DNA from: Gemmatimonadota bacterium
Lineage (GTDB): Bacteria; Latescibacterota; UBA2968
Length of the DNA: 15,831 nucleotides
Assembly: GCA_002714465.1 (NCBI GenBank)
Contig: PAXL01000045.1
Span: 6,662-22,492, forward strand
Direction: 5' to 3'
Made by a program: the position numbers and the translations under genes. Position 1 is the stretch's first letter, and each line of letters begins with the position of its first letter. Of this stretch, positions 1 to 14,562 are shown piece after piece. The notes beneath the pieces were generated by a model. The model ran no database searches. It was not told the origin of the DNA and saw only the letters and a list, made by a program, of their open reading frames with translations.

Positions 1-3000
1 GTCGCGCACACAAAGGCACAGGGCCTTCGCTCTGTCGCTCTGACCGACACTGACCGGGTCAGCGGTCTGATCCTGTTCTACCGAGCGTGTCAAGATGCCG
101 GCATCGACCCGATTCTCGGAGTCGAGTTGACCGACCCGGGGTCACAGAGAAACAGACATCCACCTGGGTTTCCTGGCAGTGATGGAGGCCATCTCGTCCT
201 CCTCGCCAAAAATGCGACAGGATACGGCGACCTCTGTGAAATCACCACGCAGCGACACTGTGACCCGGCCTTCTCAATCGCAGAAACATTCAGCAAGCCT
301 TGGCCGAACCTTTTCATCCTCACTGGATTCCCCGATCTGATCGAGCTGATCGTCCGGACACCCAACCGGGAGAACCTGTATGGCGAGCTCGTCAACAACA
401 GCGCGATCACTCGCCGACGCAGCCGTGCTCTCGTCGCCAAAGCCGAGTCGCTCGGTCTCCCCCTCGTCGCCACCAACAACAGCTTCTTTCTCCACCCCGA
501 CGACTGGGACACACACAAGACGCTCACAGCGATCGGACTCGTCTCGACCCTGTCCCGCCTCAAACCGAACGAGTATACGTCGCGCAACGGCTACCTCCGG
601 ACGACCGACGAGATGGAGCGACTCTTCCCGAACAACCCCGAGGCACTCCGGAACACCGAACTGATCGCCGACCTCTGCCAGATCGATCTCGAACTCGGGA
701 AATGGATTCTTCCACGGATCGAAGTGCCTCAGGGGCACACACCCGACTCCTACCTCTCCCAAGTCGCGGGTGACGGGCTCTTCGACAACTACGCCGGCAC
801 ACCCGAGTATGATCGGGCAAAAAAGGTCCAGAACATGGAACTCGAGGTCATCCAGAAGCTCGGTTACTCATCATACTTCCTGATGGTCATGCAGGTCCGG
901 AACTGGGCCAACGAGCGATTCAGACGCACCTACCGACACCCAAAGGACTGCACAATCCTGCGTGGCAGTGCAGCCAACTCGATCACCTTCTACAACATCG
1001 GTGCGAGCGATCTCGACCCGATACGATACGACCTCTACTTCCAGCGGTTCCTGAACGAGGATCGTGCCTCGCCTCCCGATGCGGACCTCGACTTCGGCTG
1101 GGACGAGCGGGACGAGATCCTCCAGCACGTCTTCAATCGCTGGGGTCGCGAGCGTGTCGCGCTCACGTGCACGACCAACCATTTTCGCGACCGAGCCGCC
1201 TTCCGCGAGACGGCCAAGGTCATGGGCTACACGGAAGAAGAACTATCCGAAATCCAGAAGAGCCTAAAAACGAAGACGTGCCGCGTCCACGACGACGAGC
1301 TCGAACGCATCATAACAATCGCTACTAAGATCAAGGGCAAACCGCGCTTTCTCGGCCAGCATCCCGGGGGATTACTGATCACGAACGACCCGATCTGCCG
1401 TCACGTGGCGTGCGAGTATTCGGGTGGAGAGAAGAACCGGCTGATCACGCAGATCGACATGCACAATGGGCTCGACGACCTCGGACTCGTCAAGTTCGAC
1501 CTGCTCGGGAACGGGTCTCTCTCGGTCCTGCGGGACACACTCGACCAAATCGAAGAGCAGAACTACCCGGACCCGGAAGTGTGGGATCTTGAGAAATGCT
1601 ACCACGACGAACGCGTGCTCGATATCGTCCGGAAGGGCCGCACCAAGGGCATCTTCTACATCGAGAGCCCGGCTCAGACACGCCTGAACAAGAAATCCCA
1701 GGTCGAATCGTTCGAAGAACTTGCGATCACCTCAAGCCTCATACGCCCAGCCGGTGCGTCGTATACGGCCACGTTCATCGAACGCCATCGCAAGATGAAA
1801 GCGGGCATCGTCGACTGGGAGTATCTCCATCCCTCACTCGAACCGATCCTGCAGGATTCCCACGATATCTGCGCCTTCCAGGAAGACGTCACCAAAATCT
1901 GTCACCAAGTCGCAGGGCTCAGCTTCAAGAAGGCGGACAAGATCCGAAAAATGATGAACAGCCTGCACGAGGGTGAGCAGAGTGAGGCCGTGATCCAAAA
2001 AACGGCTGAAGAGTTCTTGCAGGGCTGCATGGAGCACAGCGGACTCACACGGGAACAGGCCGTCGAGCTCTGGACACGTGTCAGCTCGTTCACCGGGTTC
2101 AGCTTCTGCAAGTCACACAGCGCAAGCTACGCGCAGCTCTCGTTCCAGTGCTCCTACCTGAAGGCGTATTACCCGGCACAGTTCATCGCATCGGTCATCA
2201 GCAACGAGCACGGCTTCTACACGAAGGAGGTATACCTCAACGAAGCGCGCCGTTGGGGAATCTCGATCCTGCCGATGAACATCAACGCCTCACGCGACAA
2301 ATATTGGGGCAAACACAGCTGGATCCGTCCCGGCATGATGCAAGTCCGAAACCTCACGCAGAAGAGTCTGGCCAACCTGCTACACGAGCGACGCGAGAAC
2401 GGTGATTTCAGGAACCTCGTCGACTTCATCGAACGAGTCGACATCGGCCGGAAGGAGATCGAAAAACTCATCCTTGTCGGAGCTTTCGACGGATACGGTA
2501 TGACACAGCCCGAAATGCTCTACCAGCTCGACGGCATCTACGGACGTCTGCGACCCAGCGAGCCGACGCTTTTCCAGACGAATTTCGGGCCTGACAACGC
2601 CTCAATGATGGACGAGCATCCAGGCCTCGACAACTACACGCTCGCCGAGCGCTGCTTTAACGAGCTCCACCTGCTCGGCTTCATGCTCTCCGGAAACATC
2701 CTAGAGATTCTGGATCTGCATCCGGCGGCAAAGAACGCGGTTCCGGCAAGCCGTATATCCGACTACCAGGGCCAGCGGATCAAGGTCTTCGGTTGGCCTG
2801 TCACCCGACGTGTTCACCACGTCGAACACAGCGGTCAGCCGATGCTGTTCATCACACTCGAAGACAAAACGGAGGTCATAGACGTCATGCTCTGGCCAGA
2901 CGTTTACAACCGCTTTGCCGACGTTATGGCCGAACCCGGGCCGTTCGAAATGTGGGGTATTGTTTCAGAGGAATGGGACACCCACACGGTCGAAGCGGAC

Positions 3001-3114
3001 ATGATAAAGGCCGTCTCCTGGTCACCCAACATGGTGGACTTGGAACTGGCCTCGAAGCGCCTGGAGTGCTCGTTCGCAAGCTTTGAGCCTTACTCGGATA
3101 TCGTAGCGGCATGA
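1..3114 (+). CDS. dnaE2: Error-prone DNA polymerase III alpha, DnaE2/ImuC type (5' partial)
   Basis: This is a C-family DNA polymerase that would carry out translesion, mutagenic synthesis. The reading frame is open from base 1 and begins inside the PHP domain (ALTDTDRVSGL near codon 14), so roughly the first 30 residues, including the first PHP histidines, lie outside the window. The palm follows: LRGSAANS, then PDADLDF at codons 359-365 with the catalytic aspartates, then LGQHPGG and KFDLLGNG carrying the third carboxylate. Next come a helix-hairpin-helix region (about codons 800-830, FRNLVDFIE) and an OB-fold (about codons 924-1010). The protein ends directly after the OB-fold, without the tau-binding tail of replicative DnaE1. 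This and GQHPGG/SHSASYAQL favour DnaE2 over DnaE1. An ImuB-like gene follows on the same strand, which supports a mutasome role. A DnaE1-like replicase is the less likely alternative. Confidence 0.9.
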   Translation, partial: VAHTKAQGLRSVALTDTDRVSGLILFYRACQDAGIDPILGVELTDPGSQRNRHPPGFPGSDGGHLVLLAKNATGYGDLCEITTQRHCDPAFSIAETFSKPWPNLFILTGFPDLIELIVRTPNRENLYGELVNNSAITRRRSRALVAKAESLGLPLVATNNSFFLHPDDWDTHKTLTAIGLVSTLSRLKPNEYTSRNGYLRTTDEMERLFPNNPEALRNTELIADLCQIDLELGKWILPRIEVPQGHTPDSYLSQVAGDGLFDNYAGTPEYDRAKKVQNMELEVIQKLGYSSYFLMVMQVRNWANERFRRTYRHPKDCTILRGSAANSITFYNIGASDLDPIRYDLYFQRFLNEDRASPPDADLDFGWDERDEILQHVFNRWGRERVALTCTTNHFRDRAAFRETAKVMGYTEEELSEIQKSLKTKTCRVHDDELERIITIATKIKGKPRFLGQHPGGLLITNDPICRHVACEYSGGEKNRLITQIDMHNGLDDLGLVKFDLLGNGSLSVLRDTLDQIEEQNYPDPEVWDLEKCYHDERVLDIVRKGRTKGIFYIESPAQTRLNKKSQVESFEELAITSSLIRPAGASYTATFIERHRKMKAGIVDWEYLHPSLEPILQDSHDICAFQEDVTKICHQVAGLSFKKADKIRKMMNSLHEGEQSEAVIQKTAEEFLQGCMEHSGLTREQAVELWTRVSSFTGFSFCKSHSASYAQLSFQCSYLKAYYPAQFIASVISNEHGFYTKEVYLNEARRWGISILPMNINASRDKYWGKHSWIRPGMMQVRNLTQKSLANLLHERRENGDFRNLVDFIERVDIGRKEIEKLILVGAFDGYGMTQPEMLYQLDGIYGRLRPSEPTLFQTNFGPDNASMMDEHPGLDNYTLAERCFNELHLLGFMLSGNILEILDLHPAAKNAVPASRISDYQGQRIKVFGWPVTRRVHHVEHSGQPMLFITLEDKTEVIDVMLWPDVYNRFADVMAEPGPFEMWGIVSEEWDTHTVEADMIKAVSWSPNMVDLELASKRLECSFASFEPYSDIVAA

Positions 3115-3274
3115 TTGCAGGAGCCGTCCCTAAGACGGCGACACAGATTTATAGGGCTCAGGAGAAGAGCGGAAGCCCCTTGCACTCACTCCACAAAAAA
3201 CCCACCGCCTTTCTTGGTGGCCTTGGTGTTAGTCATCTCTATATCTGCAACCCAGTTTGACACTTGACCCTGCA
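3115..3274. other. dnaE2-imuB intergenic region with two hairpins
   Basis: This gap holds two small inverted repeats. One, just after the dnaE2 stop, pairs GCCGTC (3123-3128) with GACGGC (3134-3139) over a 5-nt loop, but no clear T-run follows, so it is at best a weak terminator. The second pairs CCACC (3202-3206) with GGTGG (3216-3220). Read on the - strand it is followed by G and six T, like an intrinsic terminator facing left. No LexA-type operator was recognised. Neither candidate imuB start has a good Shine-Dalgarno sequence. Confidence 0.4.
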
Positions 3275-4519
3275 ATGTTCCTCGCCATCGACCACGATCA
3301 CTTCTCCGCGCAGGCCCTGTCGGCCTACGACCCGACGCTCCGGGGGCACGCCTTTGTCGTCGTCCGTCAGAGTACGGACAGCCACAAGTGTACTGTCCAG
3401 GCGTGTTCATCGAAGGCGCAACATCTCGGGATTCGACGAGGCCAGCCGGTACAGATGGTGCTCCAGAAGCACCCTCGAGTTGAAATCGTCACGCGGGACG
3501 ATCTGATCGAGGAAACAGCACGCGAGGAACTGGGCTGGATCGCCGAGCACTATACACCGGAGTTCGACGTCACCGAATTCGGACGATGCCTGCTCAACCT
3601 CTCCGGAACACCAGTCGCGGAGAACGATGTCGAGAATGTGGCTGGCCGGATCCGGGACGACATCTCGACCAAGATCGGGCTGTGTGACAACGCCATCGGG
3701 ATCGCGTCATCCCGACTGATCGCCAGCATGCTCGCAAAGCTCGCTCGACCGTGCGACACCCGTGTCTGCATCCCCGGATCGGAGTCTGAAACGTTGGCTG
3801 CCTTGGGGGCTGACATGCTGCCGGGTGTGTCGGGACAGGTAAGGGAGCGAATCCGTCAGTATGGGATCAAGCGGATTGGGCAGATCCAGCATCTCGGGAA
3901 GAATGCGCTGATCGCGAGGCTCGGTGGTGAAGGAGAGCGGCTGTTCAGCCTGTCGATCGGTGTCGATGCAAAGCAGAAAATCGAGAAGAAGAAAACAATC
4001 GAGGCCGAGACGATCCTCGACAGAGATATCAATAACGAGAAGGTACTGCGGCAGCACGTCCGGTATACGGCTGACAAACTCGCGCACGAACTGACACGTG
4101 CATCGGTTTGGGCATCCCGTGTCACCTTCATCCTCACGTATACGGACAATCGCCGGACGCAGAAAACGTCAGTCTTCACGTCTCCGACGAACGAGTGGGA
4201 TGCGATCACCGACAGGGCACTGGGCCTGTTCGGCGACTTGTATCAGAGACGCGTCGCCATCAAATCGATCCGGCTCGTCGTGCGTCAACTGCATCAGGAC
4301 ACCAACCAGATCGACCTGTTCGAGTCGGCGCAAAAGAAACGACAGCGCACGATCGGTCACGTCATGACAAAAATCAGAGACCGGCTCGGCTTCGATGCCG
4401 TAATGCCCGCAGCTAACTACGTCTCCACGGAACCTTCGGCACAAACTTCCGAATCGCCTCCCGCCGAACTAATCGATCATCTCGACCTGTTCGACGAAGG
4501 ACACGGCTATCAGCGCTGA
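3275..4519 (+). CDS. imuB: Y-family DNA polymerase-like protein, probably catalytically inactive ImuB
   Basis: The protein has Y-family architecture. The N-terminus FLAIDHDHF matches the usual IDMDAF; CSSKAQHLGIRRGQP is the fingers motif; NAIGIASSRLIA and LPGVSGQVRERIRQYGI match the palm and thumb; a little-finger domain covers about 245-340. At the second metal motif, normally SIDEAF.D.TG, it reads EFGRCLLNLSG, so the paired Asp-Glu become G103 and R104. The aromatic steric-gate position is S11. Both changes fit the non-catalytic ImuB branch, which scaffolds DnaE2 on the sliding clamp. QIDLF (345-349) is an excellent beta-clamp motif and a second LDLF sits at 403-406, close to the C-terminus. 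The order dnaE2-imuB on one strand supports this. ATG 3275 was chosen because it places the DxD motif at residue 6; TTG 3257 would add six residues. An active Pol IV/V is less likely. Confidence 0.8.
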   Translation: MFLAIDHDHFSAQALSAYDPTLRGHAFVVVRQSTDSHKCTVQACSSKAQHLGIRRGQPVQMVLQKHPRVEIVTRDDLIEETAREELGWIAEHYTPEFDVTEFGRCLLNLSGTPVAENDVENVAGRIRDDISTKIGLCDNAIGIASSRLIASMLAKLARPCDTRVCIPGSESETLAALGADMLPGVSGQVRERIRQYGIKRIGQIQHLGKNALIARLGGEGERLFSLSIGVDAKQKIEKKKTIEAETILDRDINNEKVLRQHVRYTADKLAHELTRASVWASRVTFILTYTDNRRTQKTSVFTSPTNEWDAITDRALGLFGDLYQRRVAIKSIRLVVRQLHQDTNQIDLFESAQKKRQRTIGHVMTKIRDRLGFDAVMPAANYVSTEPSAQTSESPPAELIDHLDLFDEGHGYQR

Positions 4520-5715: not shown

Positions 5716-6324
5716 TCAGCTCAGCTTGCCCATCTTCTTCATCAGGTCGATGATCTGACTCGCTGCCTCCTCGGGCGTACACTCTGAAGTCTTGATCACG
5801 AGTTCCGGATTCTCCGGTGACTCATAAGGGTCCGAGACACCCGTGAAGTTCGGTATCTCTCCGGTGCGCGCTTTCGCATACAGACCCTTCGGGTCTCTCG
5901 CTTCGCAAACCTCAACGGACGTGTCGATAAACACTTCTGCAAAGTCGCCGTCGGCCATCAACTCGCGGACCGCGTCCCGATCGGCTCGATAGGGGCTCAC
6001 GAAGCTCGTAAAGGTGATCACACCGGCATCCGTAAACAGCTTACCGACCTCCCCAATCCTCCGGATGTTCTCTGCGCGATCCTCTGCCGAGAATCCCAGG
6101 TTCTTGTTCAACCCGTGCCGAACGTTGTCTCCATCGAGTACGTAGGCAAGGCGGTCCTGCTCAACGAGAATGTGTTCCGCCGTGAACGCGATCGTACTCT
6201 TACCCGAACTCGGAAGACCTGTCAGCCAGATCATACACCCCTGCTGGTTCAGCAGGCTCTCTCTTTTGTCTCGACTGACGTGTCCCTCGTGCCAAACGAC
6301 GTTCGTTGCCTTCACTTCAGCCAA
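5716..6324 (-). CDS. cysC: Adenylylsulfate (APS) kinase CysC
   Basis: It phosphorylates adenosine 5'-phosphosulfate with ATP to give PAPS, the sulfate donor for assimilation or for sulfotransferases; cytoplasmic. The P-loop GLPSSGKST is at residues 36-44, LDGDNVRHGL at 63-72, the SPYRADRD loop at 110-117 and the family signature DPKGLYAKARTGEIPNFTG at 144-162, followed by DPYESPENPEL. At 202 residues it is a normal stand-alone kinase, not fused to CysN. The start is TTG 6324: AAGGAGG lies 5 nt upstream and no in-frame ATG fits better. No cysD, cysN or sulfotransferase gene is in the window, so the PAPS user cannot be named. It may be translationally coupled to a short ORF immediately upstream. 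Confidence 0.93.
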   Translation of the reverse strand: MAEVKATNVVWHEGHVSRDKRESLLNQQGCMIWLTGLPSSGKSTIAFTAEHILVEQDRLAYVLDGDNVRHGLNKNLGFSAEDRAENIRRIGEVGKLFTDAGVITFTSFVSPYRADRDAVRELMADGDFAEVFIDTSVEVCEARDPKGLYAKARTGEIPNFTGVSDPYESPENPELVIKTSECTPEEAASQIIDLMKKMGKLS

Positions 6325-6679
6325 AATGTCCTCCTTACAACCAGAAAAGGAAATCCGGGCTCAACACGCGTCGACCGCCCGGATCGACTGTAGCTACGGG
6401 CCAAGGGCCCGCAAACGGACAGGCCTTAAAGCTATCCATTTCCATTGCCCGTCGCAATGGATACATCTTGAATCTCCGGCTAGACCAGGCCAAAAAGACG
6501 CTCAAGAACCATCTCAGGCAGAGCCTGTAAGTAATCAGAAGCAGGGACACAGCGACAACGAAGGGGATCAGGGTTTGTGTAGCGATCGAATTACGGCCGG
6601 CCCGATCGAACTCCATGCTTGCCACATCCTGACCGAAAGCCGACTTTTTCGTCTTCGGCCAAAACGCAGGAGGAATGTG
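6325..6679. other. Divergent cysC/leuB-like intergenic region
   Basis: These 355 bp separate divergent genes and should hold both promoters, though no convincing -35/-10 pair was found. Visible structures are CGGGCC/GGCCCG over a 3-nt loop (6397-6411), and TATCCATT (6433-6440) pairing with AATGGATA (6456-6463). The latter competes with an inner pairing of CCATTG (6442-6447) with CAATGG (6455-6460). No leucine-rich leader peptide or T-box was recognised. A possible short - strand ORF is listed separately. Confidence 0.4.
6335..6625 (-). CDS. Possible small membrane protein upstream of cysC
   Basis: This 96-residue ORF starts at GTG 6625 (or ATG 6616, three codons in). No family is recognised. 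One clear hydrophobic stretch, about residues 18-46 (TLIPFVVAVSLLLIT and onward), could be a transmembrane segment, followed by an Arg/Lys-rich stretch and a soluble tail. Its TAA stop (6335-6337) overlaps the AAGGAGG site of cysC, an arrangement typical of translational coupling. That position is the main reason to list it. Against it: the upstream ribosome binding site is weak, it contains rare-looking AGA/AGG codons, and the stretch is otherwise just the divergent cysC/leuB leader. It could also be a remnant of a larger membrane gene. Confidence 0.3.
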   Translation of the reverse strand: MASMEFDRAGRNSIATQTLIPFVVAVSLLLITYRLCLRWFLSVFLAWSSRRFKMYPLRRAMEMDSFKACPFAGPWPVATVDPGGRRVLSPDFLFWL

Positions 6680-7759
6680 GTGAAGTACAAGATCGGGCTT
6701 CTGCCCGGAGACGGGATCGGACCGGAGATCGCGCTCGAAGCGAAGAAGGTCCTAGCGGCGGTTGAGACAGATGTGGAGTTCGAGTGGCTGGAAGCGCCGC
6801 TTGGCGGGCAGGCATACTTCGACACGGGCAAGGCCTTCCCCGAGGAGACACAAGCCGTATGCGACCAGTCGGACGCGATCCTGAAAGGACCGATCGGACT
6901 GAGTCTGGACGAGGCGAAAAAGATCCCTGTAGAGGAACAGCCTGAGCGTGGCGCACTCCTCCCGCTGCGGGCGAGATACGACACGTTCGCCAACTTCCGC
7001 CCTGTCTACCTGCCGAAGGAGCTCGTCCACTTCTCACCGCTCAAACCCGAGATCACCGGGGACGGAATCGATATCCTTATGATCCGGGAACTTGTCGGCG
7101 GCCTCTACTTCGGAGCAAAGGACCAAGGGACGAACGAGGCCGGCCACCGATATGTCCGTGAAACGCTCGAATACGATGAGCAGCAGATTTCTCGAATCCT
7201 GCACGTCGCCTTCGGGGAGGCCCGAAAGCGAAAGGGAGTCCTTCACAACGTTCACAAGAGTAATGTCCTGATTTCAAGCGTCCTGTGGAATCAGGTTCTG
7301 GACGAGGTGGCCGAGGATTACGCGGATGTGACCGTCGAGCACGTGATCGTCGACGCGGCAGCGGCTGCTCTGTGCCTGGACCCGCGACAATTCGACGTGA
7401 TGGTCATGGAAAACATGATGGGTGACATCCTTAGCGATCAAGCCGGAGGCATTCTGGGATCTCTCGGGTTGATGCCCTCGGCCTGCGTCGGGCCAAGGAA
7501 AGCTTACTACGAGCCGGCGCACGGATCCGCTCCGGACATAGCGGGTCAAGGCATCGCAAACCCCTACTCCATGATCGGCAGCGTAGCCATGATGCTCGAA
7601 ACGAGCTTTGGGATGCACGAAGAGGCGAGAACGATCTGGTCCGCGCTCACGCAGGTGTTTGCGGACGGGTATGCGACGCAGGACCTCGCTCGGGAAGGTA
7701 TGGAGCCCCTCGACACGGCCACATTCGGCGACGAAGTCGCGAAGCGTCTTCATCGATAG
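6680..7759 (+). CDS. LeuB-like isopropylmalate/isocitrate-type dehydrogenase
   Basis: This is an NAD(P)-dependent beta-hydroxyacid oxidative decarboxylase of the IPMDH/ICDH superfamily. The 359 residues match LeuB length. Motifs in order are GLLPGDGIGPEI (6-17), DTFANFRP (101-108), IRELVGGLYFG (135-145), HKSNVL with the catalytic lysine K193, VDAAAA with metal ligand D225, GDILSDQA (248-255) with D249 and D253, and YEPAHGSAPDIAGQGIANP (277-295). Several positions are unlike housekeeping LeuB: ENMMGD replaces TNN.FGD, and LKGPIG replaces the usual LLGAVGGP. LeuC and LeuD are not nearby, so 3-isopropylmalate is only one candidate; homoisocitrate, tartrate or malate-type substrates are possible. 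The start is GTG 6680, with AGGAGG 6 nt upstream (6668-6673). The frame extends further upstream, but that part is not protein-like. Confidence 0.85.
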   Translation: MKYKIGLLPGDGIGPEIALEAKKVLAAVETDVEFEWLEAPLGGQAYFDTGKAFPEETQAVCDQSDAILKGPIGLSLDEAKKIPVEEQPERGALLPLRARYDTFANFRPVYLPKELVHFSPLKPEITGDGIDILMIRELVGGLYFGAKDQGTNEAGHRYVRETLEYDEQQISRILHVAFGEARKRKGVLHNVHKSNVLISSVLWNQVLDEVAEDYADVTVEHVIVDAAAAALCLDPRQFDVMVMENMMGDILSDQAGGILGSLGLMPSACVGPRKAYYEPAHGSAPDIAGQGIANPYSMIGSVAMMLETSFGMHEEARTIWSALTQVFADGYATQDLAREGMEPLDTATFGDEVAKRLHR

Positions 7760-7761
7760 GG

Positions 7762-7817
7762 TATAGTACGGACAAAGGGGCTGCGACAGATGTCGCAGCC
7801 CCTTTGTCCGTACTATA
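7762..7817. terminator. Perfect 27-bp inverted repeat, bidirectional terminator
   Basis: Arms 7762-7788 and 7791-7817 are exact reverse complements with a 2-nt GA spacer. The core is AAAGGGGCTGCGACA facing TGTCGCAGCCCCTTT, giving a GC stem with an A-run on one side and a T-run on the other, the usual shape of a bidirectional terminator. It sits between the converging stops of the leuB-like gene (7759) and the dehydratase gene (7828). Its complete symmetry over 27 bp is unusual. Confidence 0.85.
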
Positions 7818-7827
7818 TTGTGTACAA

Positions 7828-8961
7828 TCAATCCGACACGCGATTGGCCTCGATGTAGTCCCAGTCGAATTCCATCCCAAGTCCCGGTAGTGTGGGAAGG
7901 ATTACGTTCCCGGCCCCATCCATAGGATCACAGATCGCTTTCAGATACGGGGCCGGCTGATCGTAATCCAAGTCGGGCCGCAGCAACCCCCGCTCGAAAT
8001 ACTCGCACGTGGATTCCGGTGTCGCTCCAAGAACATGGCTATTTGTGAATCCTCCCCCGTGCATCTCACATTGGATTCCATAGGCCTGACAGAGCATCGC
8101 GTGCTTGTGGCTTCCCGTAATGCCTCCGTAGTGCACGTCGATCCGACTCATGTCCGAACCCTTCTGGAGCACCCATTCGGCCCGAGAGAACGGACCGCCA
8201 GATGCGTGCTCGGGCGAACAGATAGCGATATCCACAGACTCAGCCAGCCGTCGATAGGCCTCCGGACGGGTCTCTATCATCGGGTGTTCGAGCCAGTAGA
8301 AATCCAGCTTCTCGAGCTCGCGGGCAACCCAGATCGACTCCTCCAAAGTGTAGACCCCGAAGGGATCCAGCATCAGCACCATTTCTGGCCCGACAGCTTC
8401 TCGTACGGCTCGGCAAACCTCCACATCCTCTTTGGGGAACCCTGGCAACTGCGGGGCGTGTTCCCACGTCCTGGGGTTGAAGTAGATGTAGGCATGAACC
8501 TTGTAGGCCGTGTATCCGAGCGCTTTCATCTCCAGCGCGTGTCGCGCGTAGTCTTCGGGCTTGCCCATGTTCGGCCAGGTACTCGCATACGCCTTAACCT
8601 TATCCCTGCAGCCACCCAGACACTTGTGAACGGGAAGCCCGACATGGCGGCCATATAGGTCCCACAACGCACAGTCTATGTGTCCTGCCAGTCCCTCGGA
8701 GAAACCCGGATGCTGGTCCATCCAGTGCCATAGTTTCTCGCGGTCGAACGGATTTTCACCCACGAGAAGGGGTTTCACGACACGCTCTATCGTCGCGGGA
8801 TCACCTCCAGTATTGTAGCCAACGCCTCCGTCATCCGAAAGGATCCGGGTCAGAGACGTTGTCACATCGCGCTCAGAACCCCAGTAGTAATATCCGTACC
8901 GCGTTGGATGGTTCCGTGTCCGTGTCCGAAACTGGATCACCTCGATATCGACGATTTTCAA
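7828..8961 (-). CDS. Enolase-superfamily dehydratase/racemase, mandelate racemase type
   Basis: Members abstract the alpha-proton of a carboxylate, most often to dehydrate a sugar acid. The protein (377 residues) has the capping domain at 1-120 and a barrel with the expected residues: metal ligands D199 (MLDPFG), E225 (LEHPM) and E251 (SPEHASGG), and the Asp-His dyad D275 (DVHYGGITG) and H301 (EMHGGG) at the spacing seen in mandelate racemase. The second-strand base motif reads K154-V-H156 instead of the common KxK. The substrate cannot be deduced. It starts with TTG 8961, with GAGGAG 6 nt upstream. It is the last gene of a - strand run after purU, the demethylase and metVF, only 70 bp after metVF, so it is probably co-transcribed and may act on the demethylated product. 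Confidence 0.87.
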   Translation of the reverse strand: MKIVDIEVIQFRTRTRNHPTRYGYYYWGSERDVTTSLTRILSDDGGVGYNTGGDPATIERVVKPLLVGENPFDREKLWHWMDQHPGFSEGLAGHIDCALWDLYGRHVGLPVHKCLGGCRDKVKAYASTWPNMGKPEDYARHALEMKALGYTAYKVHAYIYFNPRTWEHAPQLPGFPKEDVEVCRAVREAVGPEMVLMLDPFGVYTLEESIWVARELEKLDFYWLEHPMIETRPEAYRRLAESVDIAICSPEHASGGPFSRAEWVLQKGSDMSRIDVHYGGITGSHKHAMLCQAYGIQCEMHGGGFTNSHVLGATPESTCEYFERGLLRPDLDYDQPAPYLKAICDPMDGAGNVILPTLPGLGMEFDWDYIEANRVSD

Positions 8962-9031
8962 AGCCGTCTCCTCATCCTGCTCAGCAGCGTAGCCCTGACT
9001 CTACGTTGATCGCAATATAACTCGCACCGCG

Positions 9032-10291
9032 TCAGGCCGACGCCTTCTCGTATCTGGACCGTGCGGCCCTCCCGCGTTCACGAATCTCTACAAGAAACGC
9101 ATCGATCAACTCAGGGGGCATTCCGAAATTCATGACGTGCACACCAGCAGCCCCATTCTCGGTAACTCCCTCGGCAATACCAAAGGCCCATTCCAGCGCG
9201 TTCTGCTGGTGGTCCTTGTTGTCCATCACGGCGTGAAGGGATGGGTCCACGTAGACACCCGGCAGCCGGCACAACACTTCGAACATCCTCTGGCTTCCGA
9301 CAAGCGGGATCGACGGAATCGTCAACCGGGCTTCGGCTTCCCTTCCCTCTCTGAGACCTTCATACCATCTGGCGAACGTATCGACGTTCGTAACGGCCTG
9401 TGTCTGGCTGAACCGAGCACCCGCATGTCGTTTGTTATGCAACCGTCGAAGGCTCACCTCTATCGGTGTCGAGAAGGGATTCGATGCACAGCCGATGAAC
9501 GGGACGACACCCAACCTCTGTTGATAGTCCCGAAGCCTCCGGTTGACAGCGTGGATCATCTGCAAGCTGTCCATCGGGAACCACGTCTTCTGGCTCACCC
9601 CGCGCTCGACATTAGGTAACCAGTCTCCAGTCAGCAGCAGGAAATTCCTATACCCCATATCCAGCGCCGACTCGATCTCTCTCAGCAGGTCGGGCTCGTC
9701 GTGATCTCGCCCGCAGAACTGAATCACGGACTCAACCCCGTGCGCCCTCACGACCTTTGCCGTCTCGGTCGAGTGCAGAGACGGGACACCACCCGCGTTG
9801 GTCGTCGTGTTCACCGCATCCACGTGATCAGCCACGCGACGCATGATCCGCTCTACACGTCGCAGCCCGTCCTCTGTGCGTGGAGACGCTATCTCCAGCG
9901 TCACGACGAACTCCTCACCATACATCTTCTCGGAGAGGCTGGAGGATGCCGGTATATCCCCCAAATCAACCACGTCCTGCGGCAGGCGTGTCTTTCGGTC
10001 TTTCCCGTTGACCAGGTTGACATAGCTGGCCGTGTTGTAAAGTTCTTTTTGAGGCGACAGGTGAAGCGTTTCAAACGACGGCTTCTTGCGCTGATCGATC
10101 TCCGTCCAGACACACGTTTTCTCAGGCAGGACTTCACACTTCCCTTCGAGCGTCCCCCCGCAGGGCCCGTTTCTCAATCCCTTCGGACAGTTCATTGGAC
10201 AGACCATGGCCGTATGAGACAGCACACACTGCCCGCAAGACTGACAGTCGAAAAGCTTCTCTTTGATCCATTTTTCGATTTCGTAGATCAA
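9032..10291 (-). CDS. metF: Fused MetV-MetF-type methylenetetrahydrofolate reductase
   Basis: It interconverts 5-methyl-THF and 5,10-methylene-THF. Residues 1-65 form a MetV-like cysteine-rich domain (the MTHFR C-terminal, PF12225-type domain): C16, C19 and C22, then C31, C35, C44, C52 and C60, around CPKGLRNGPCGG. Residues about 120-405 form the MetF flavin barrel: LEIASPRTEDG with E133, FCGRDHDEPDL, LLLTGDW and RFSQTQAV. In acetogens MetV and MetF are usually separate subunits; here one 419-residue polypeptide carries both. The gene lies between a THF-dependent demethylase (112 bp upstream) and the dehydratase, so it likely runs in the oxidative direction to clear methyl-THF. The start is TTG 10291, with GAGG 8 nt upstream. 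The electron acceptor is unknown; the Cys-rich domain suggests a metal or Fe-S centre. Confidence 0.87.
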   Translation of the reverse strand: MIYEIEKWIKEKLFDCQSCGQCVLSHTAMVCPMNCPKGLRNGPCGGTLEGKCEVLPEKTCVWTEIDQRKKPSFETLHLSPQKELYNTASYVNLVNGKDRKTRLPQDVVDLGDIPASSSLSEKMYGEEFVVTLEIASPRTEDGLRRVERIMRRVADHVDAVNTTTNAGGVPSLHSTETAKVVRAHGVESVIQFCGRDHDEPDLLREIESALDMGYRNFLLLTGDWLPNVERGVSQKTWFPMDSLQMIHAVNRRLRDYQQRLGVVPFIGCASNPFSTPIEVSLRRLHNKRHAGARFSQTQAVTNVDTFARWYEGLREGREAEARLTIPSIPLVGSQRMFEVLCRLPGVYVDPSLHAVMDNKDHQQNALEWAFGIAEGVTENGAAGVHVMNFGMPPELIDAFLVEIRERGRAARSRYEKASA

Positions 10292-10403
10292 ATCAGGAAC
10301 CTCAAAAACACGGATACAATAAAGATAGGTTTAAGCATCGGTCACCCCGAATAAGTGCGGCAGCGGGTGTATCGAGGGGCCAGCCTATCGAAACGGAAAT
10401 GAC

Positions 10404-11735
10404 CTAGCCCACCGGCCTTTCTGTCCGGATCACCGCACGAACCTCAGTCTGCACGTGCCGCTCAACCACCGGCTTGTCCGTACCTCCGTTCTCCTCACCC
10501 CAGACGACGGTCACCTCTGCCCCGTCCACAGCCTCCGTTTCATCAATCATGGCTAGCGAAAACCAGGCCCTGACGTTCGAGGTGTAACAGTTGTAAGTAG
10601 AGAGCCCGATGAGCTTCCCGTCTTTCAGGACAGAATCGAAAGGGCAGGCAGAATACTGTGAACCGGGTGCCTCGAGATACTTGAAGCGATCTCCGGTGCC
10701 AAGCACGCTCCGCATGATTCGCACGATGTCGTCATCGTTCCAAACTAGCCATACCTTTTCACGATGTGACTGCGATGCCTTCTCCTCTAGCGCTGCGCGG
10801 CCGACAAAGTCGTGATCGAACTTCACGTGCATACCGTAGCCGAGATCCCAAGGTGTCTGGTAGTAGTCCTCAACGTTGTCCGATTTGAAGCTGCCACCGA
10901 GTGACAGGCTGCCTTCGAAACCATCCGCTGCAAGCCATTCTCTGTAACCCTGCATCGACTCCGTATACAGTGCAGGCATCGGCGACGGAATCCAGCCCGA
11001 TTCAGGCGAAACGGTCGAATACGCTCGGGCCCCCACTTCGCGCAACCCGTGCGCCTTTCCGGCTTCCGTCAGTGCCTCTCGGACCTTCTCACCGTGTTCG
11101 GCAGCGCCAAAGATCTCCAGCCCCTGCGTCCGGGCCATACCGTGACCCAGCCCGTTCACTTCGCAACCCGCGATCGAGAACTGCCCGACGTGGAAGAACT
11201 TGATTCTGGGGAGCGATCCGTCTGCCGCCTCGGCGATGATTGCCATCGCATTAGGACCCTGGATCTGATAGCGGAAGATCTTGCGTTGTCCACCCTCGAC
11301 CGACCGGATGTCGCGTCTCACCGTGACATCGTAGTCGTCGGTCTCTGCGTGGTATGCGACCCAGTTCGGCACGGATGGCCGGCCACTGATGTTCACCTTG
11401 TTCTCTTCAAGCCCGAAGAGAATCGCGTCTCCGATCACATACCCCTCTTCATTGCAGCACACGATCTGCTTTGCCCGGTTCGGACCGAAGTTCTTGAAGC
11501 TGTTGACCGCCAGCCTTTCAAGCAGCGTTCGGACGTCCGGCCCTTCAAAGTAGATGTCCGTCATGTGTTTCGACAGATCGAACAACACGGCCGACGTGAA
11601 CCACGCCTCCTGTTCGTCTGCCCAGTTACTAAACTCAGGCGCAATCGGGAAGATGTAGGGCCCGGTCTGTGCATTTCGCATCATCTCGACCGGGTTCGCC
11701 CAGCCTTTCAGCTTCTGTTCTAAAGACTCTTCCAT
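10404..11735 (-). CDS. ligM: LigM/DesA-like THF-dependent O-demethylase (GcvT fold)
   Basis: It transfers a methyl group from a methoxylated substrate to tetrahydrofolate, giving 5-methyl-THF and a hydroxylated product. The 443 residues align nearly end to end with LigM (vanillate/3-O-methylgallate demethylase) as I remember it: VEMMRNAQTGPY, PEFSNW, SAVLFD, RYQIQGPNA, ESGWIPSP, VKFDHDFVGR and VVWGEENGGT. The LigM residues Arg-122 and Tyr-247 have counterparts in R119 (SGRPS) and Y239 (ARAY). The start is ATG 11735 with GGAG 8 nt upstream; an upstream in-frame extension to 11864 is Arg-rich and not family-like. Co-directional purU upstream and metVF downstream form the C1-oxidising partners. 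A DMSP demethylase or aminomethyltransferase is less likely given the LigM match. The substrate is not proven. Confidence 0.85.
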   Translation of the reverse strand: MEESLEQKLKGWANPVEMMRNAQTGPYIFPIAPEFSNWADEQEAWFTSAVLFDLSKHMTDIYFEGPDVRTLLERLAVNSFKNFGPNRAKQIVCCNEEGYVIGDAILFGLEENKVNISGRPSVPNWVAYHAETDDYDVTVRRDIRSVEGGQRKIFRYQIQGPNAMAIIAEAADGSLPRIKFFHVGQFSIAGCEVNGLGHGMARTQGLEIFGAAEHGEKVREALTEAGKAHGLREVGARAYSTVSPESGWIPSPMPALYTESMQGYREWLAADGFEGSLSLGGSFKSDNVEDYYQTPWDLGYGMHVKFDHDFVGRAALEEKASQSHREKVWLVWNDDDIVRIMRSVLGTGDRFKYLEAPGSQYSACPFDSVLKDGKLIGLSTYNCYTSNVRAWFSLAMIDETEAVDGAEVTVVWGEENGGTDKPVVERHVQTEVRAVIRTERPVG

Positions 11736-11879
11736 ACTTCTCTCTCCGTGTCGTTTTGTTGTGGCGTGTACGGTGAGCAATGTCCGATTCCCCAGTTCGA
11801 TTCGCGCGCCGATGGATATCCTCCGCCGTCTTCGTTCGCCCATCGCGGCGCGCCACCTCCCCACTTCCTATCACTTAGG

Positions 11880-11922
11880 GTAGCCCACCCGAGCGGAGTC
11901 GAGGCATATCTTCCGTGGCTAC
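11880..11922. repeat. Possible interspersed hairpin repeat between purU and the demethylase gene
   Basis: The 208-bp gap holds GTAGCC (11880-11885) pairing with GGCTAC (11917-11922) around a core GAGCGGAGTCGAGG (11891-11904). That core resembles a GAGCG-AGTCGA-type extragenic element that recurs in many environmental bacterial genomes, as far as I remember. Only one copy is in the window, so repeat status is inferred. Confidence 0.3.
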
Positions 11923-11943
11923 TCTCTTCGCTGAAGGTCTCTT

Positions 11944-12789
11944 CTAATCGAAGATCACGGTCCGGTTAGCGCTCACGAAGACGCGTTCTTCCAACACGAG
12001 GTTCAATGCCTTTGCCAGTACAGTCTTCTCGACGTCACGGCCAGCCTGGGCCATGTCCGCAGCGGAATGGGTGTGATCCACGGGGATCACGCTCTGGGCG
12101 ATGATCGGCCCTTCATCCAGATCGTCCGTCACGAAATGCGCCGTCGCGCCGATGATCTTCACACCACGCTGGAAGGCCTGGCCGTAAGGGTTCGCTCCGA
12201 CGAACGCAGGCAAGAAGGAGTGGTGGATGTTCACTATCCTTCTTGGAAAGCGAGAGACGAAAGCGCCGCTCAGGATCCGCATATATTTGGCCAGAACCAG
12301 AATGTCTGCTGGGTATTGCTCGACTGCCGCGAGCATCTGCGCCTCGTGTTCGTCTCGGTCGACGTCCTGATGCGGGACACAGTGGAACGGGACGTCGAAC
12401 CGACTCACCAGGGATTCCAGGTCCGGACGATTACTGATGACCGCGTGTAAGCGCGCGTCGAACTCCCCCGCCGCCTGGCGCACTAGCAGGTCGCCAAGAC
12501 AATGTGCTTCGCGAGTCGCAAGGATGACGATATCCTTAGGTCTCGACAGGCCAAGCTGAACGGATGCCTCGGGCGGCAGCTCAGCTTGGAGATCCGAGAT
12601 CACTTTCTCGGGATCGCACTCACCTTCGAGCTCAGCACGCAGAAAGAACCGCGACCTCTTTTCATCAACGAACTCGCCGTTGGACACGATGTTCATCCCG
12701 TGTCCAAAGATCACGCCTGTAATCCCGTAGATCAGCCCCTTCGCATCGGGGCATTCGACGCGCAGGATATATCTGCTCTCTCTACCCAT
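11944..12789 (-). CDS. purU: Formyltetrahydrofolate deformylase PurU
   Basis: It hydrolyses 10-formyl-THF to THF and formate. Residues 1-80 are an ACT regulatory domain (ILRVECPDAKGLIYGITG), and 85-280 are the formyltransferase-like hydrolase domain. The catalytic triad of this fold is present: N187 and H189 in NIHHSFLP, and D225 in DDLDEGPI, spaced exactly as in GAR transformylase (38 residues from Asn to Asp). SNRPDL replaces the more usual SNHPDL. The length (281 residues) is typical. ATG 12789 has AGGTG 5 nt upstream. It is the first gene of the - strand run with the demethylase and metVF and lies back to back with an AraC regulator. Such placement indicates disposal of substrate-derived C1 units as formate and recycling of THF, as seen with purU in other demethylation clusters. 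Confidence 0.93.
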   Translation of the reverse strand: MGRESRYILRVECPDAKGLIYGITGVIFGHGMNIVSNGEFVDEKRSRFFLRAELEGECDPEKVISDLQAELPPEASVQLGLSRPKDIVILATREAHCLGDLLVRQAAGEFDARLHAVISNRPDLESLVSRFDVPFHCVPHQDVDRDEHEAQMLAAVEQYPADILVLAKYMRILSGAFVSRFPRRIVNIHHSFLPAFVGANPYGQAFQRGVKIIGATAHFVTDDLDEGPIIAQSVIPVDHTHSAADMAQAGRDVEKTVLAKALNLVLEERVFVSANRTVIFD

Positions 12790-12898
12790 TCAGGCACCTG
12801 TTTGGAATTGCGCTATAGGTTTACAACATGAATAGAGTATCATTAACAGCACTAAACGTGTTTGCATATCGGGCAAATAAGAACTGGAGAATCGGGCT
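12790..12898. promoter_or_regulatory. Divergent promoter/operator region of purU and the araC-type gene
   Basis: This AT-richer 109-bp segment must carry both divergent promoters. TTTGC (12861-12865) and GCAAA (12873-12877) form an inverted repeat with a 7-bp spacer and are a candidate operator. TATAGC-like and GCATAT-like -10 elements exist, but none has a convincing -35 partner. The AraC-family regulator encoded on the right is the obvious candidate to bind here. Confidence 0.45.
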
Positions 12899-13726
12899 AT
12901 GACCAAACACGCGGCACCGGTCGAAGTTACACTACCCGAAGATGGCATCCGTGTCGTCGAGAGCATCCACGAACCGACATTCATGATGAGGCTCAGGACC
13001 GACGCGTTCGACAAGCTCTTCCTGGTCGGCAGGGGATCGATCGAAATTGCCTCGTCATCGGCGAATCGGCTTCGGGCCACTGAGGGAAGCGCCGTCTTCG
13101 TACCCCGAGGGTTGGAGCATAAGATCGAAGATATCGAGGCATCTACGCTCTTTCTTCTCTGCTTTTCGGACGCCCTAGGGCAAGGCTTCGACGAATGGGA
13201 GTCCATTCGAGTTGAGCTTGGAGACGTGGTCAGAATGTGGTCCGACCCTCCACTGGAGTCGACTCTTCTTACCCTGTGGCGTCGACTTCTTGCGGAGCAG
13301 GAACGAAGCGACCTCGGCAGCCGGGCGCTCTTGAAGGCAGAGTCCTTGAAACTTCTTGTCCGACTTGCTCGGTCTGATGACAGCTCAACGGTTAGGCAAA
13401 CCAGCCGCATCTCAGAGCTGGTATCAGAACTCGAGCGCACTTCATTCGAGCCCTGGACCATCGACAGGGCCGCAAGTTGGGCCGGTGTCTCGAGACGCCA
13501 GTTCACGAAAACTTTCAGGAGTGCCACAGGGCGCACTTTCGTCGAGCATCTAACCGGAGTTCGCCTGCAGCGTGCCAAGGAACTGCTTCGGTCGGGAGGA
13601 TACACGATAGCGGGAGCTGCATATACCTGTGGGTTCGGTGACCTGGCTCACTTCTACCGTACATTCAAGCATTATGAGGGAAAGACGCCCTTGCAGTGGG
13701 CGGATGCGGCTAACGGGTCGAAGTAA
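12899..13726 (+). CDS. AraC-family transcriptional regulator with cupin-like sensor
   Basis: This is a DNA-binding regulator. The N-terminal half (about 25-90) looks like an AraC cupin sensor (KLFLVGRGSIEI, EGSAVFVPRGLEH). The C-terminal half has the two AraC helix-turn-helix motifs: about 187-206 (TIDRAASWAGVSRRQFTKTF) and 235-257, ending in the family signature GFGDLAHFYRTFKHYEGKTP. At 275 residues it is normal in length. ATG 12899 has GGAGA 8 nt upstream. It is divergent from purU across 109 bp and followed by the rraA-like gene, so it probably activates the demethylase cluster in response to its substrate. The effector is unknown; regulation of the cluster is inferred from position. Confidence 0.88.
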   Translation: MTKHAAPVEVTLPEDGIRVVESIHEPTFMMRLRTDAFDKLFLVGRGSIEIASSSANRLRATEGSAVFVPRGLEHKIEDIEASTLFLLCFSDALGQGFDEWESIRVELGDVVRMWSDPPLESTLLTLWRRLLAEQERSDLGSRALLKAESLKLLVRLARSDDSSTVRQTSRISELVSELERTSFEPWTIDRAASWAGVSRRQFTKTFRSATGRTFVEHLTGVRLQRAKELLRSGGYTIAGAAYTCGFGDLAHFYRTFKHYEGKTPLQWADAANGSK

Positions 13727-13833: not shown

Positions 13834-14562
13834 ATGCCCAACGATCCGCAGGACATCCCCGTATCCCAGGAGACCCTTGATCAGCTGATGGTTCCCAGCA
13901 CGGCTACGCTGACGTCGATCCTGAATAATCACGGTCTCTGGAACACTTTTATGTACAACGTGGCGCCACTCAAGCCGGGAATGAAGATGGCCGGTCCTGC
14001 TTTCACGATGCGTTACATTCCGGCACGAGAAGACGTCGACCGGATTCCTGTCGACAACCTCGTCGACATCCAGCGTATCGCGATCGAACAGATCAGTGCT
14101 GGAGAGGTATTCGTGATCGACGCACGTGGCGACGACAGTGCGGGCACGATGGGTTCGATCCTCGCAACGCGTCTCCACGTTAGGGGGTGTCTGGGAATCG
14201 TGACAGATGGGGCATATAGGGACAGTCCAGCAATCGCTGACCTGGGCATCGCCGCATACGCTCGTTCGATGAATGCACGGACAAACAAGACGGTCCACAG
14301 CCCTGTCGATCTGCAACTACCTGTCGCTTGTGGAGGCGTGGCTGTTTACCCAGGCGATATCATCGTCGGAGATAGCGAGGGTGTCATCGTTGTGCCACGC
14401 CATCTCGCCTCAGAAATTGCGGAGCAATCGGCCGGAATGGAGCTACGCGAGGAATTTATCACAGAGAAGATCAAGGATGGTGCCAGCATCGTCGGCACAT
14501 ATCCGGCAGACGAGAACACCCTCATAGAATTCGAAGCGTGGAAGAAAGTAAAGAAAAAGTAG
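13834..14562 (+). CDS. RraA-family protein (possible aldolase-type lyase)
   Basis: RraA-family members include class II HMG/CHA aldolases (such as LigK), oxaloacetate decarboxylases and the RNase E regulator RraA. Visible blocks are KMAGPAFTMRY (51-61), GSILATRLHVRG (107-118), TDGAYRD (124-130) with R129-D130, and VGDSEGVIVVP (178-188). In HMG/CHA aldolases an acidic metal ligand lies 21 residues before the Arg; here that position is S108, so aldolase chemistry is uncertain. It resembles the GSILATRL...DG..RDSP subgroup, whose function I cannot name. At 242 residues it is complete. The start ATG 13834 has AAGGAG 6 nt upstream. It lies 107 bp after the AraC gene on the same strand, so it may cleave or process a downstream intermediate of the demethylation/dehydratase pathway. 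Confidence 0.8.
   Translation: MPNDPQDIPVSQETLDQLMVPSTATLTSILNNHGLWNTFMYNVAPLKPGMKMAGPAFTMRYIPAREDVDRIPVDNLVDIQRIAIEQISAGEVFVIDARGDDSAGTMGSILATRLHVRGCLGIVTDGAYRDSPAIADLGIAAYARSMNARTNKTVHSPVDLQLPVACGGVAVYPGDIIVGDSEGVIVVPRHLASEIAEQSAGMELREEFITEKIKDGASIVGTYPADENTLIEFEAWKKVKKK

What the first reader, a model, noticed from the sequence alone, without database searches (positions are those of the whole stretch)
9032..12789. Demethylation-to-formate module: LigM-like enzyme, MetVF and PurU under an AraC regulator
Seen: a LigM/DesA-like demethylase flanked on one strand by purU and metVF, with an AraC gene divergent from purU. Known: LigM gives 5-methyl-THF, and metF and ligH are co-transcribed with ligM in Sphingobium SYK-6. 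Inference: this locus strips methyl groups, oxidises them via MetVF and a FolD-type step elsewhere, and releases formate through PurU. No ring-cleavage gene is present, so the substrate may not be a lignin aromatic. A mandelate racemase-family dehydratase and an RraA-like protein nearby hint at a methoxylated hydroxy- or sugar acid.
Basis: partly seen in the sequence, partly recalled or inferred. Interest (0 to 1): 0.72.

Follow-up and report, generated by a model that had tools for sequence, protein, structure and literature searches.

The report
Bacterial methyl-stripping-to-formate gene module
This bacterial gene cluster very probably pulls methyl groups off methoxylated compounds, most likely phenolics, and burns them to formate; it is a recognisable relative of a known lignin-degradation system, rewired in a little-studied group of bacteria, most of whose genomes showed neither of two common kinds of ring-breaking enzyme.

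Summary
In detail: on the minus strand lie purU, a LigM/DesA-family demethylase gene and a metV-metF fusion, with an AraC gene divergent from purU. The demethylase scores 563 bits (DesA model) and 492 (LigM), against 85 for GcvT and 38 for DmdA; it passes neither named cut-off. In a tree it sits in a clade of Planctomycetota, Verrucomicrobiota and Lentisphaerota sequences.

The neighbourhood is conserved: of 30 loci of that clade, MetF is beside the demethylase in 27, AraC in 22, PurU in 19, all three in 16. Outside the clade, 13 of 50 loci have both MetF and PurU.

New evidence for the formate exit: genomes with PurU beside the demethylase mostly lack formate-THF ligase (Fhs present in 5 of 32), those without it mostly have it (36 of 47). 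SYK-6 uses LigH, an Fhs, there. The pattern fails in Actinomycetota and is only moderate in phylogenetic pairs.

LigB-type ring cleavage was found in 0 of 30 clade genomes, the intradiol domain in 7; many are incomplete bins. The sugar-acid idea is not supported: the dehydratase recurs in 0 of 80 loci. Substrate and direction of MetVF are inferred. New variant of a known kind.

The parts
12899..13726 (+). AraC-family regulator gene, divergent from purU
   Evidence: HTH_18 77 bits, weak cupin N-terminal match; an AraC relative within 5 kb in 22 of 30 clade loci and 1 of 50 other loci (38 bits)
12790..12898 (.). 109-bp divergent intergenic region, presumed site of promoters and operator
   Evidence: read directly; no sigma-70-type site found there; function inferred
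11944..12789 (-). purU, formyltetrahydrofolate deformylase: ACT domain (just below its Pfam cut-off) plus formyltransferase domain
   Evidence: TIGR00655 360.6 bits, cut-off 285.95; Pfam; solved deformylase 3w7b 238 bits, HHSFLPAF.GA.PY core shared
10404..11735 (-). LigM/DesA-family, presumably tetrahydrofolate-dependent, demethylase gene (443 aa, ATG start at 11735)
   Evidence: DesA model 562.7 and LigM model 492.3 bits, both below cut-off; GcvT 84.6, DmdA 38.4; solved LigM 416 bits; tree; residue tables
9032..10291 (-). metVF: N-terminal MetV-type cysteine-rich domain fused to an MTHFR (MetF) domain; TTG start
   Evidence: PF12225 at residues 5-71 and PF02219 at 125-387; the other 119 listed homologues (64-78% identity) carry the same two domains (best 120 of 800 listed)
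9024..9043 (-). weak terminator-like hairpin at the end of metVF
   Evidence: number of such sites not above shuffled expectation

Best explanation
A regulated catabolic module. The AraC protein senses a methoxylated compound and turns on purU, the demethylase and metVF. The demethylase moves the O-methyl group of its substrate, most likely a methoxyphenol or methoxy-aromatic acid, onto tetrahydrofolate, giving 5-methyl-THF and the free hydroxyl compound. MetVF oxidises 5-methyl-THF to 5,10-methylene-THF, the housekeeping FolD takes it to 10-formyl-THF, and PurU hydrolyses that to formate and regenerates THF, so that the demethylase does not run out of acceptor. PurU stands where LigH (10-formyl-THF synthetase, Fhs) stands in Sphingobium SYK-6. 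Shown: gene identities, clade, conserved neighbourhood, PurU/Fhs replacement pattern. Inferred: the substrate class, the oxidative direction of MetVF, the role of AraC, co-transcription, the fate of formate.
For: Family scores and full-length LigM match. LigM positions 29, 60, 122, 215, 247 and 256 identical in 31 of 31 clade members, window included (the catalytic role of Tyr247 and the numbering offset are recalled or assumed, not from a call). MetF beside the demethylase in 27 of 30 clade loci, PurU in 19 of 30, both in 13 of 50 loci of other phyla. FolD in 30 of 30 clade genomes. Fhs over cut-off in 2 of 19 clade genomes with the adjacent PurU against 10 of 11 without, and in 3 of 13 against 26 of 36 elsewhere (stratified p 3e-5). 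12 of 19 clade genomes with the adjacent PurU hold a second PurU over cut-off, so there the module copy is extra. FdhD, a formate-dehydrogenase maturation gene, in 22 of 30. SYK-6 precedent: ligM-metF-ligH operon with MetF, FolD and LigH named as the route (PMC6888825, passages).
Against: I found no member of this clade with a tested activity in the searches I ran. The direction of MetF cannot be read from sequence. Within Actinomycetota the PurU/Fhs pattern does not hold (Fhs 2 of 8 with, 0 of 4 without), and the independent-pair test is only moderate (median p 0.031, range 0.016-0.29). FdhD was not found in 8 of 30 genomes, among them four of the five nearest rows to the window (L001, L002, L004, L005; L003's genome has it). 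The nearest locus with a named organism, L001, has neither MetF nor PurU in the stretch held (2.8 kb and 10 kb of flank). No genome is held for the window itself.
Confidence: 0.63

Rival explanations
1. Anabolic one-carbon supply: the demethylase and MetVF mainly feed methylene-THF to biosynthesis, as reported for SYK-6, and PurU is only a safety valve that bleeds off excess formyl-THF.
For: In SYK-6 the LigM/MTHFR pair is described as replacing glycine cleavage (PMC12585457, whole text). The genes are the same kinds up to PurU.
Against: Eight of 30 clade loci have a GcvP-type glycine-cleavage gene within 5 kb, so at least those need no replacement; the other genomes were not searched for it. 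A second, module-borne PurU in 12 of 19 and the Fhs replacement pattern point to net flux to formate.
Confidence: 0.18
2. The substrate is a methoxylated sugar or hydroxy acid, handled together with the neighbouring dehydratase-like and RraA-like proteins.
For: A mandelate-racemase-family protein (best solved relative 1rvk, 268 bits) and an RraA-like protein flank the module; an FAH hydrolase whose best NCBIfam match, below cut-off, is 2,4-didehydro-3-deoxy-L-rhamnonate hydrolase lies beside AraC in nine Opitutaceae-type loci (only the L007 protein was scored).
Against: Dehydratase relative in 0 of 80 loci, RraA in 1 of 30 clade loci at 47 bits. As far as I recall, the characterised THF-dependent O-demethylases of this family act on aromatic ethers.
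Confidence: 0.1
3. The enzyme removes an N-methyl, S-methyl or methylenedioxy group.
For: Related THF-dependent enzymes open methylenedioxy rings (BrdA, SesA; PMC5547118, Results part 1); MABO, FolD and PurU share an operon that handles an N-methyl group on plasmid pAO1 (PMC6214936, passages); L001 carries an MTTB-family gene nearby, below the trimethylamine cut-off.
Against: Methylenedioxy cleavage puts a methylene on THF and should need no MetF (inference), yet MetF is beside the gene in 27 of 30 loci. Scores to DmdA, the sarcosine-oxidase family and dimethylglycine oxidase are low (38, 50 and 30 bits).
Confidence: 0.07

Closest known systems
LigM and the ligM-metF-ligH operon of Sphingobium SYK-6
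   Same: LigM-family demethylase next to a methylene-THF reductase and an enzyme acting on 10-formyl-THF; route MetF, FolD, formyl exit (PMC6888825, passages).
   Different: PurU instead of LigH (10-formyl-THF synthetase); MetV-MetF fusion; AraC beside the genes instead of regulation by the MarR-type DesR; the enzyme is outside the LigM clade and differs at residues beside Tyr247. Whether the SYK-6 MetF has a MetV domain was not checked.
DesA (syringate O-demethylase)
   Same: Best-scoring named model, 563 bits.
   Different: Below the 800-bit cut-off; the four DesA proteins used form their own clade (support 100); position 29 is Asn in 4 of 4 DesA and Tyr in 31 of 31 here.
MABO-FolD-PurU operon of plasmid pAO1 (nicotine breakdown)
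   Same: A demethylating enzyme with FolD and PurU in one operon (PMC6214936, passages).
   Different: An amine oxidase acting on an N-methyl group (flavin chemistry recalled), without MetF in the passages seen.
Anaerobic methoxydotrophy (corrinoid O-demethylases of acetogens and some archaea)
   Same: Uses the methyl groups of methoxylated aromatics.
   Different: Corrinoid methyltransferases (recalled), not a LigM-type protein. Only the search listing and abstract starts were seen.

Membership tests
LigM/DesA family of THF-dependent O-demethylases (broad) | full-length similarity to LigM, far above GcvT and DmdA | tested here: met
   416 bits over residues 4-438 to solved LigM; GcvT 84.6, DmdA 38.4 bits
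LigM/DesA family of THF-dependent O-demethylases (broad) | catalytic Tyr247 (LigM numbering and role recalled) | tested here: met
   Tyr in 31 of 31 clade members (window included), 4 of 4 LigM, 4 of 4 DesA, 50 of 50 other loci
LigM/DesA family of THF-dependent O-demethylases (broad) | THF-dependent O-demethylation | not testable with these tools
   needs purified enzyme
LigM equivalog (NF047885) | score at or above 580 bits | tested here: not met
   492.3 bits; LigM clade separate, support 100. The cut-off is loose: L033, L060 and L096 pass it (585, 614, 597 bits) yet lie outside the LigM clade
DesA equivalog (NF047633) | score at or above 800 bits | tested here: not met
   562.7 bits; DesA clade separate, support 100
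DmdA / GcvT | score above the cut-off (410 / 300) | tested here: not met
   38.4 and 84.6 bits
PurU (TIGR00655) | score at or above 285.95 bits | tested here: met
   360.6 bits
MetV-MetF | PF12225 and PF02219 in one chain above their cut-offs | tested here: met
   82.6 against 23 and 83.6 against 24 bits
canonical MetF (TIGR00676) | score at or above 293.7 bits | tested here: not met
   38.6 bits
SYK-6-type ligM-metF-ligH operon | MetF neighbour | tested here: met
   metVF at 9032-10291
SYK-6-type ligM-metF-ligH operon | LigH (10-formyl-THF synthetase) neighbour | tested here: not met
   no formate-THF ligase among the annotated window ORFs; PurU beside the demethylase instead. No dedicated Fhs search of the window was run

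The most novel reading that the evidence does not exclude
A widespread aerobic methyl-harvesting way of life in Planctomycetota, Verrucomicrobiota and kin: these bacteria strip and burn methoxyl groups of phenolics through a dedicated LigM-like/MetVF/PurU module under its own AraC regulator, and leave the aromatic ring untouched for others, the aerobic counterpart of anaerobic methoxydotrophy.
Probability: 0.35. Interest if true: 0.7.

Novelty: new variant of a known kind. Interest (0 to 1): 0.46.

Why it matters
Methoxyl groups of lignin and other phenolics are a large carbon pool. If the reading is right, bacteria of phyla known (from recall) chiefly as polysaccharide degraders also draw on it, some without the ring-cleavage enzymes that are normally used to recognise aromatic degraders in metagenomes, so that they would be missed. 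The PurU-for-Fhs replacement suggests a simple genomic rule for which LigM-type systems hydrolyse formyl-THF and which could conserve its energy as ATP, and it is directly testable.

Tried and rejected
Rejected: membership in DmdA or GcvT; orthology with LigM or DesA proper; the sugar-acid link through the dehydratase and RraA. A structure prediction from 20 sequences gave a mediocre model (mean pLDDT 68) and no fold search was run on it, since sequence similarity to solved LigM already shows the family. The host could not be named: no genome is held; the nearest named DnaE2 relatives among the 120 listed are only 61-62% identical (Chitinivibrionales, Chitinispirillaceae, Gemmatimonadota), while the nearest demethylase with a name is from a Phycisphaeraceae bin (79%). 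In that bin's class the demethylase was found at E <= 1e-60 in 1 of 397 genomes drawn, the bin itself, and in its phylum MetVF matched at that threshold in 6 of 392 genomes drawn, at 36-39% identity only, so the L001 contig may be mis-binned or a transfer. The first idea that PurU and Fhs exclude each other genome-wide was wrong: a PurU over cut-off occurs in 33 of 36 genomes searched; it is the copy beside the demethylase that alternates with Fhs. Literature: two searches on LigM or methoxylated aromatics with Verrucomicrobia returned no paper; four more, of which I saw only the 20 best entries of 77, 44, 26 and 119 papers, showed none on this module in these phyla. Yu et al. 2025 (Commun Biol), cited in PMC12585457 as showing similar gene sets in many bacteria, is not held and may overlap with this report.
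Full report
What is there. The window's minus strand carries purU (11944-12789), a LigM/DesA-family demethylase gene (10404-11735) and a metV-metF fusion (9032-10291), with an AraC-family gene (12899-13726) divergent from purU. All frames are intact. The demethylase start is best placed at the ATG at 11735 after a GGAGAGAG stretch. Beyond the module lie, on one side, a mandelate-racemase-superfamily gene (7828-8961, -), a leuB-like gene (6650-7759, +), cysC (5716-6324, -), a DUF72 gene, a Y-family polymerase (ImuB-like) gene and dnaE2; on the other an RraA-like gene (13834-14562, +) and a protein with EF-hand/dockerin-like motifs (by eye).

Which family. The demethylase matches solved LigM over its length at 416 bits, the DesA model at 562.7 bits (cut-off 800), the LigM model at 492.3 (cut-off 580), GcvT at 84.6 and DmdA at 38.4. 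A 96-row tree (quick method, SH-aLRT support) puts it with L001 from a Phycisphaeraceae bin (99) inside a clade of 31 rows: Verrucomicrobiota 28, Lentisphaerota 1, Planctomycetota 1 and the window (97). LigM (SYK-6 and three Novosphingobium proteins; two of the three were scored and both pass the LigM cut-off) and DesA (four Novosphingobium proteins over the DesA cut-off) form separate clades with support 100. The LigM cut-off itself is loose: L033, L060 and L096 pass it yet fall outside the LigM clade. Rooting on a very long GcvT branch is unreliable, so I use the tree only for the clades. The rows were chosen by similarity to the window's protein, so the tree does not sample the family evenly.

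Active-site positions. In the clade the LigM positions Tyr29, His60, Arg122, Glu215, Tyr247 and Trp256 are identical in 31 of 31; of these 60, 215, 247 and 256 are also identical in the 50 other loci. Phe31, Arg210, Val250, Ser251, Gln302 and His312 are fixed in 31 of 31 and Pro252 in 30 of 31. Arg210 (2 of 50), Gln302 (4 of 50) and, by the listed letters, Ser251, Pro252 and His312 are rare or unlisted in the other loci, whereas Phe31 (31 of 50) and Val250 (14 of 50) are common there. Numbering assumes an offset of 4 from the solved chain, and the roles of the residues are recalled from published LigM structures, which I could not open. Retained catalytic residues with altered neighbours of the catalytic tyrosine suggest the same chemistry on a different or broader substrate; this is inference.

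Conserved neighbourhood. I looked for relatives of the window genes by phmmer (E 1e-6; PurU at least 150 bits) with the stop codon within 5 kb of the demethylase match. In the 30 clade loci: MetF 27, AraC 22, PurU 19, MetF plus PurU 18, all three 16. Several contigs end close to the gene, so these are lower bounds. In the 50 others: MetF 14, PurU 13, both 13, AraC 1 (38 bits). At 4-10 kb AraC and MetF occurred in 1 and 0 of 30 clade loci, and PurU and MetF in 4 and 3 of 50 others. The usual layout in the Verrucomicrobiota is AraC, divergent, then MetF, demethylase, PurU; in the window, L004 and L005 the layout differs but the set is the same, and in L009 and L025 MetF follows PurU. MetV and MetF are fused in the order MetV-MetF in the window and, by similarity and cysteine pattern, in L004, L005 and L010-L013; in the order MetF-MetV in ten loci (Pfam on L007 and L023; the rest by cysteine pattern); and separate in L015 (MetV by Pfam; MetF by similarity) and, by similarity, L019. 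Outside the clade the neighbouring MetF is a single MTHFR domain in the two checked by Pfam (L039, L069). Two opposite fusions in the same operon position argue that MetV and MetF work together here. Among relatives of 62-82% identity at least ten demethylase/MetVF pairs have the same longest-contig length (for example 3201, 3408 and 4608 bases), which suggests that the two genes lie together there too; the contigs themselves were not seen.

The formate exit. In SYK-6 the operon is ligM-metF-ligH, LigH being 10-formyl-THF synthetase (Fhs), and the route is given as MetF, FolD, LigH (PMC6888825, passages only). If PurU does that job here, PurU beside the demethylase and Fhs should replace each other. 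In the 30 clade genomes Fhs is over cut-off in 2 of 19 with the adjacent PurU and 10 of 11 without (one of the two, L007's genome, has the fhs frame interrupted by a stop just downstream of purU and is counted as having Fhs). The pattern was noticed on this set. In the other loci the figures are 3 of 13 and 26 of 36 (L047 and L048 lie in one genome and count once); six of these 49 genomes had already been seen, and without them it is 2 of 10 and 24 of 33, p 0.007. Fisher p is 2e-5 for the clade and 0.003 for the others; stratified by phylum p is 3e-5. Dropping seven loci without PurU whose contig ends soon downstream (L008, L031, L041, L047, L062, L065, L080) leaves 5 of 32 against 31 of 40, p 2.6e-7. 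Phylogenetically independent pairs, on supported branches: 11 pairs, on average 6.6 in the predicted direction, 0.4 against and 3.9 ties; median sign-test p 0.031, range 0.016-0.29. My own greedy pairing on the best tree gave 12 pairs: 8 for, 0 against, 4 ties. Against: within Actinomycetota there is no such pattern (2 of 8 with, 0 of 4 without), and Acidobacteriota are uninformative (no adjacent PurU, Fhs in 10 of 14). Genome incompleteness can hide Fhs. PurU itself is not tied to the module: 33 of 36 genomes searched have a PurU over cut-off, and 12 of 19 clade genomes with the adjacent copy have a second one. FolD occurs in 30 of 30 clade genomes, as expected of a housekeeping gene. FdhD, a formate-dehydrogenase accessory gene, occurs in 22 of 30 clade genomes and 5 of 6 comparison genomes.

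Ring cleavage. LigB-type extradiol dioxygenase: 0 of 30 clade genomes, 4 of 6 comparison genomes over cut-off. Intradiol dioxygenase domain: 7 of 30 and 6 of 6. So 23 of 30 clade genomes showed neither. Many are bins of unknown completeness, and gentisate, homogentisate, other extradiol and anaerobic routes were not searched. The pattern fits use of the methyl group alone but does not prove it, and the window's own genome is unknown.

Substrate. The module has no conserved partner that would name a skeleton. Relatives of the dehydratase and of the leuB-like gene were found in 0 of 80 loci, RraA in 1 of 30 and 3 of 50. One Opitutaceae-type branch has an FAH-family hydrolase beside AraC (nine loci), and five of those loci also a URO-D-family gene; the one scored (L022) resembles MtaA/CmuA methyltransferases below cut-off. 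L001 has AFOR, FAH and MTTB-family genes. These are leads, not an answer. That the family's characterised members act on aromatic ethers rests on PMC9404685 (passages, naming DesA, LigM, Dmt and Dmt50) and recall.

Verdict. It is a variant of the LigM/MetF one-carbon route with PurU in place of LigH, a MetV-MetF fusion and an AraC neighbour, in a separate clade of demethylases. The published statement that many bacteria have similar gene sets (PMC12585457, whole text, citing Yu et al. 2025, not held) lowers the novelty.

Noticed in passing
L007:12396-14058: An fhs (formate-THF ligase) frame interrupted by an in-frame stop lies just downstream of purU in this Opitutaceae bin (coordinates converted), perhaps Fhs being lost after PurU took over, perhaps an assembly error.
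   Followed up: partly
L008, L014, L021, L022, L023, about 2.7-3.0 kb upstream of the demethylase: A URO-D-family gene (the L022 protein resembles MtaA/CmuA methylcorrinoid methyltransferases, below cut-off) sits between AraC and the MetF-MetV fusion; all five genomes have Fhs and none of the five loci shows an adjacent PurU, though L008 has only 203 bp downstream.
   Followed up: partly
L007:8333-9904 and nine other loci: MetF and MetV are fused in the order opposite to the window's protein.
   Followed up: partly
L001: This Phycisphaeraceae bin contig (79% identical demethylase) has AFOR, FAH, MTTB and anion-symporter family genes round the demethylase instead of MetF and PurU; the gene was found in 1 of 397 genomes of the class, so the contig may be mis-binned.
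   Followed up: partly
7766-7813: A hairpin of at least 20 pairs followed by TATATTGTGT lies between the converging leuB-like and mandelate-racemase-family genes, probably a two-way terminator.
   Followed up: no
7828-8961: Enolase-superfamily protein with no curated family over cut-off; best solved relative 1rvk (268 bits), named only isomerase/lactonizing enzyme.
   Followed up: partly
1-4519: dnaE2 and an ImuB-like Y-family polymerase gene in tandem, as in known mutagenesis cassettes (recalled); dnaE2's nearest named relatives are only 61-62% identical.
   Followed up: partly
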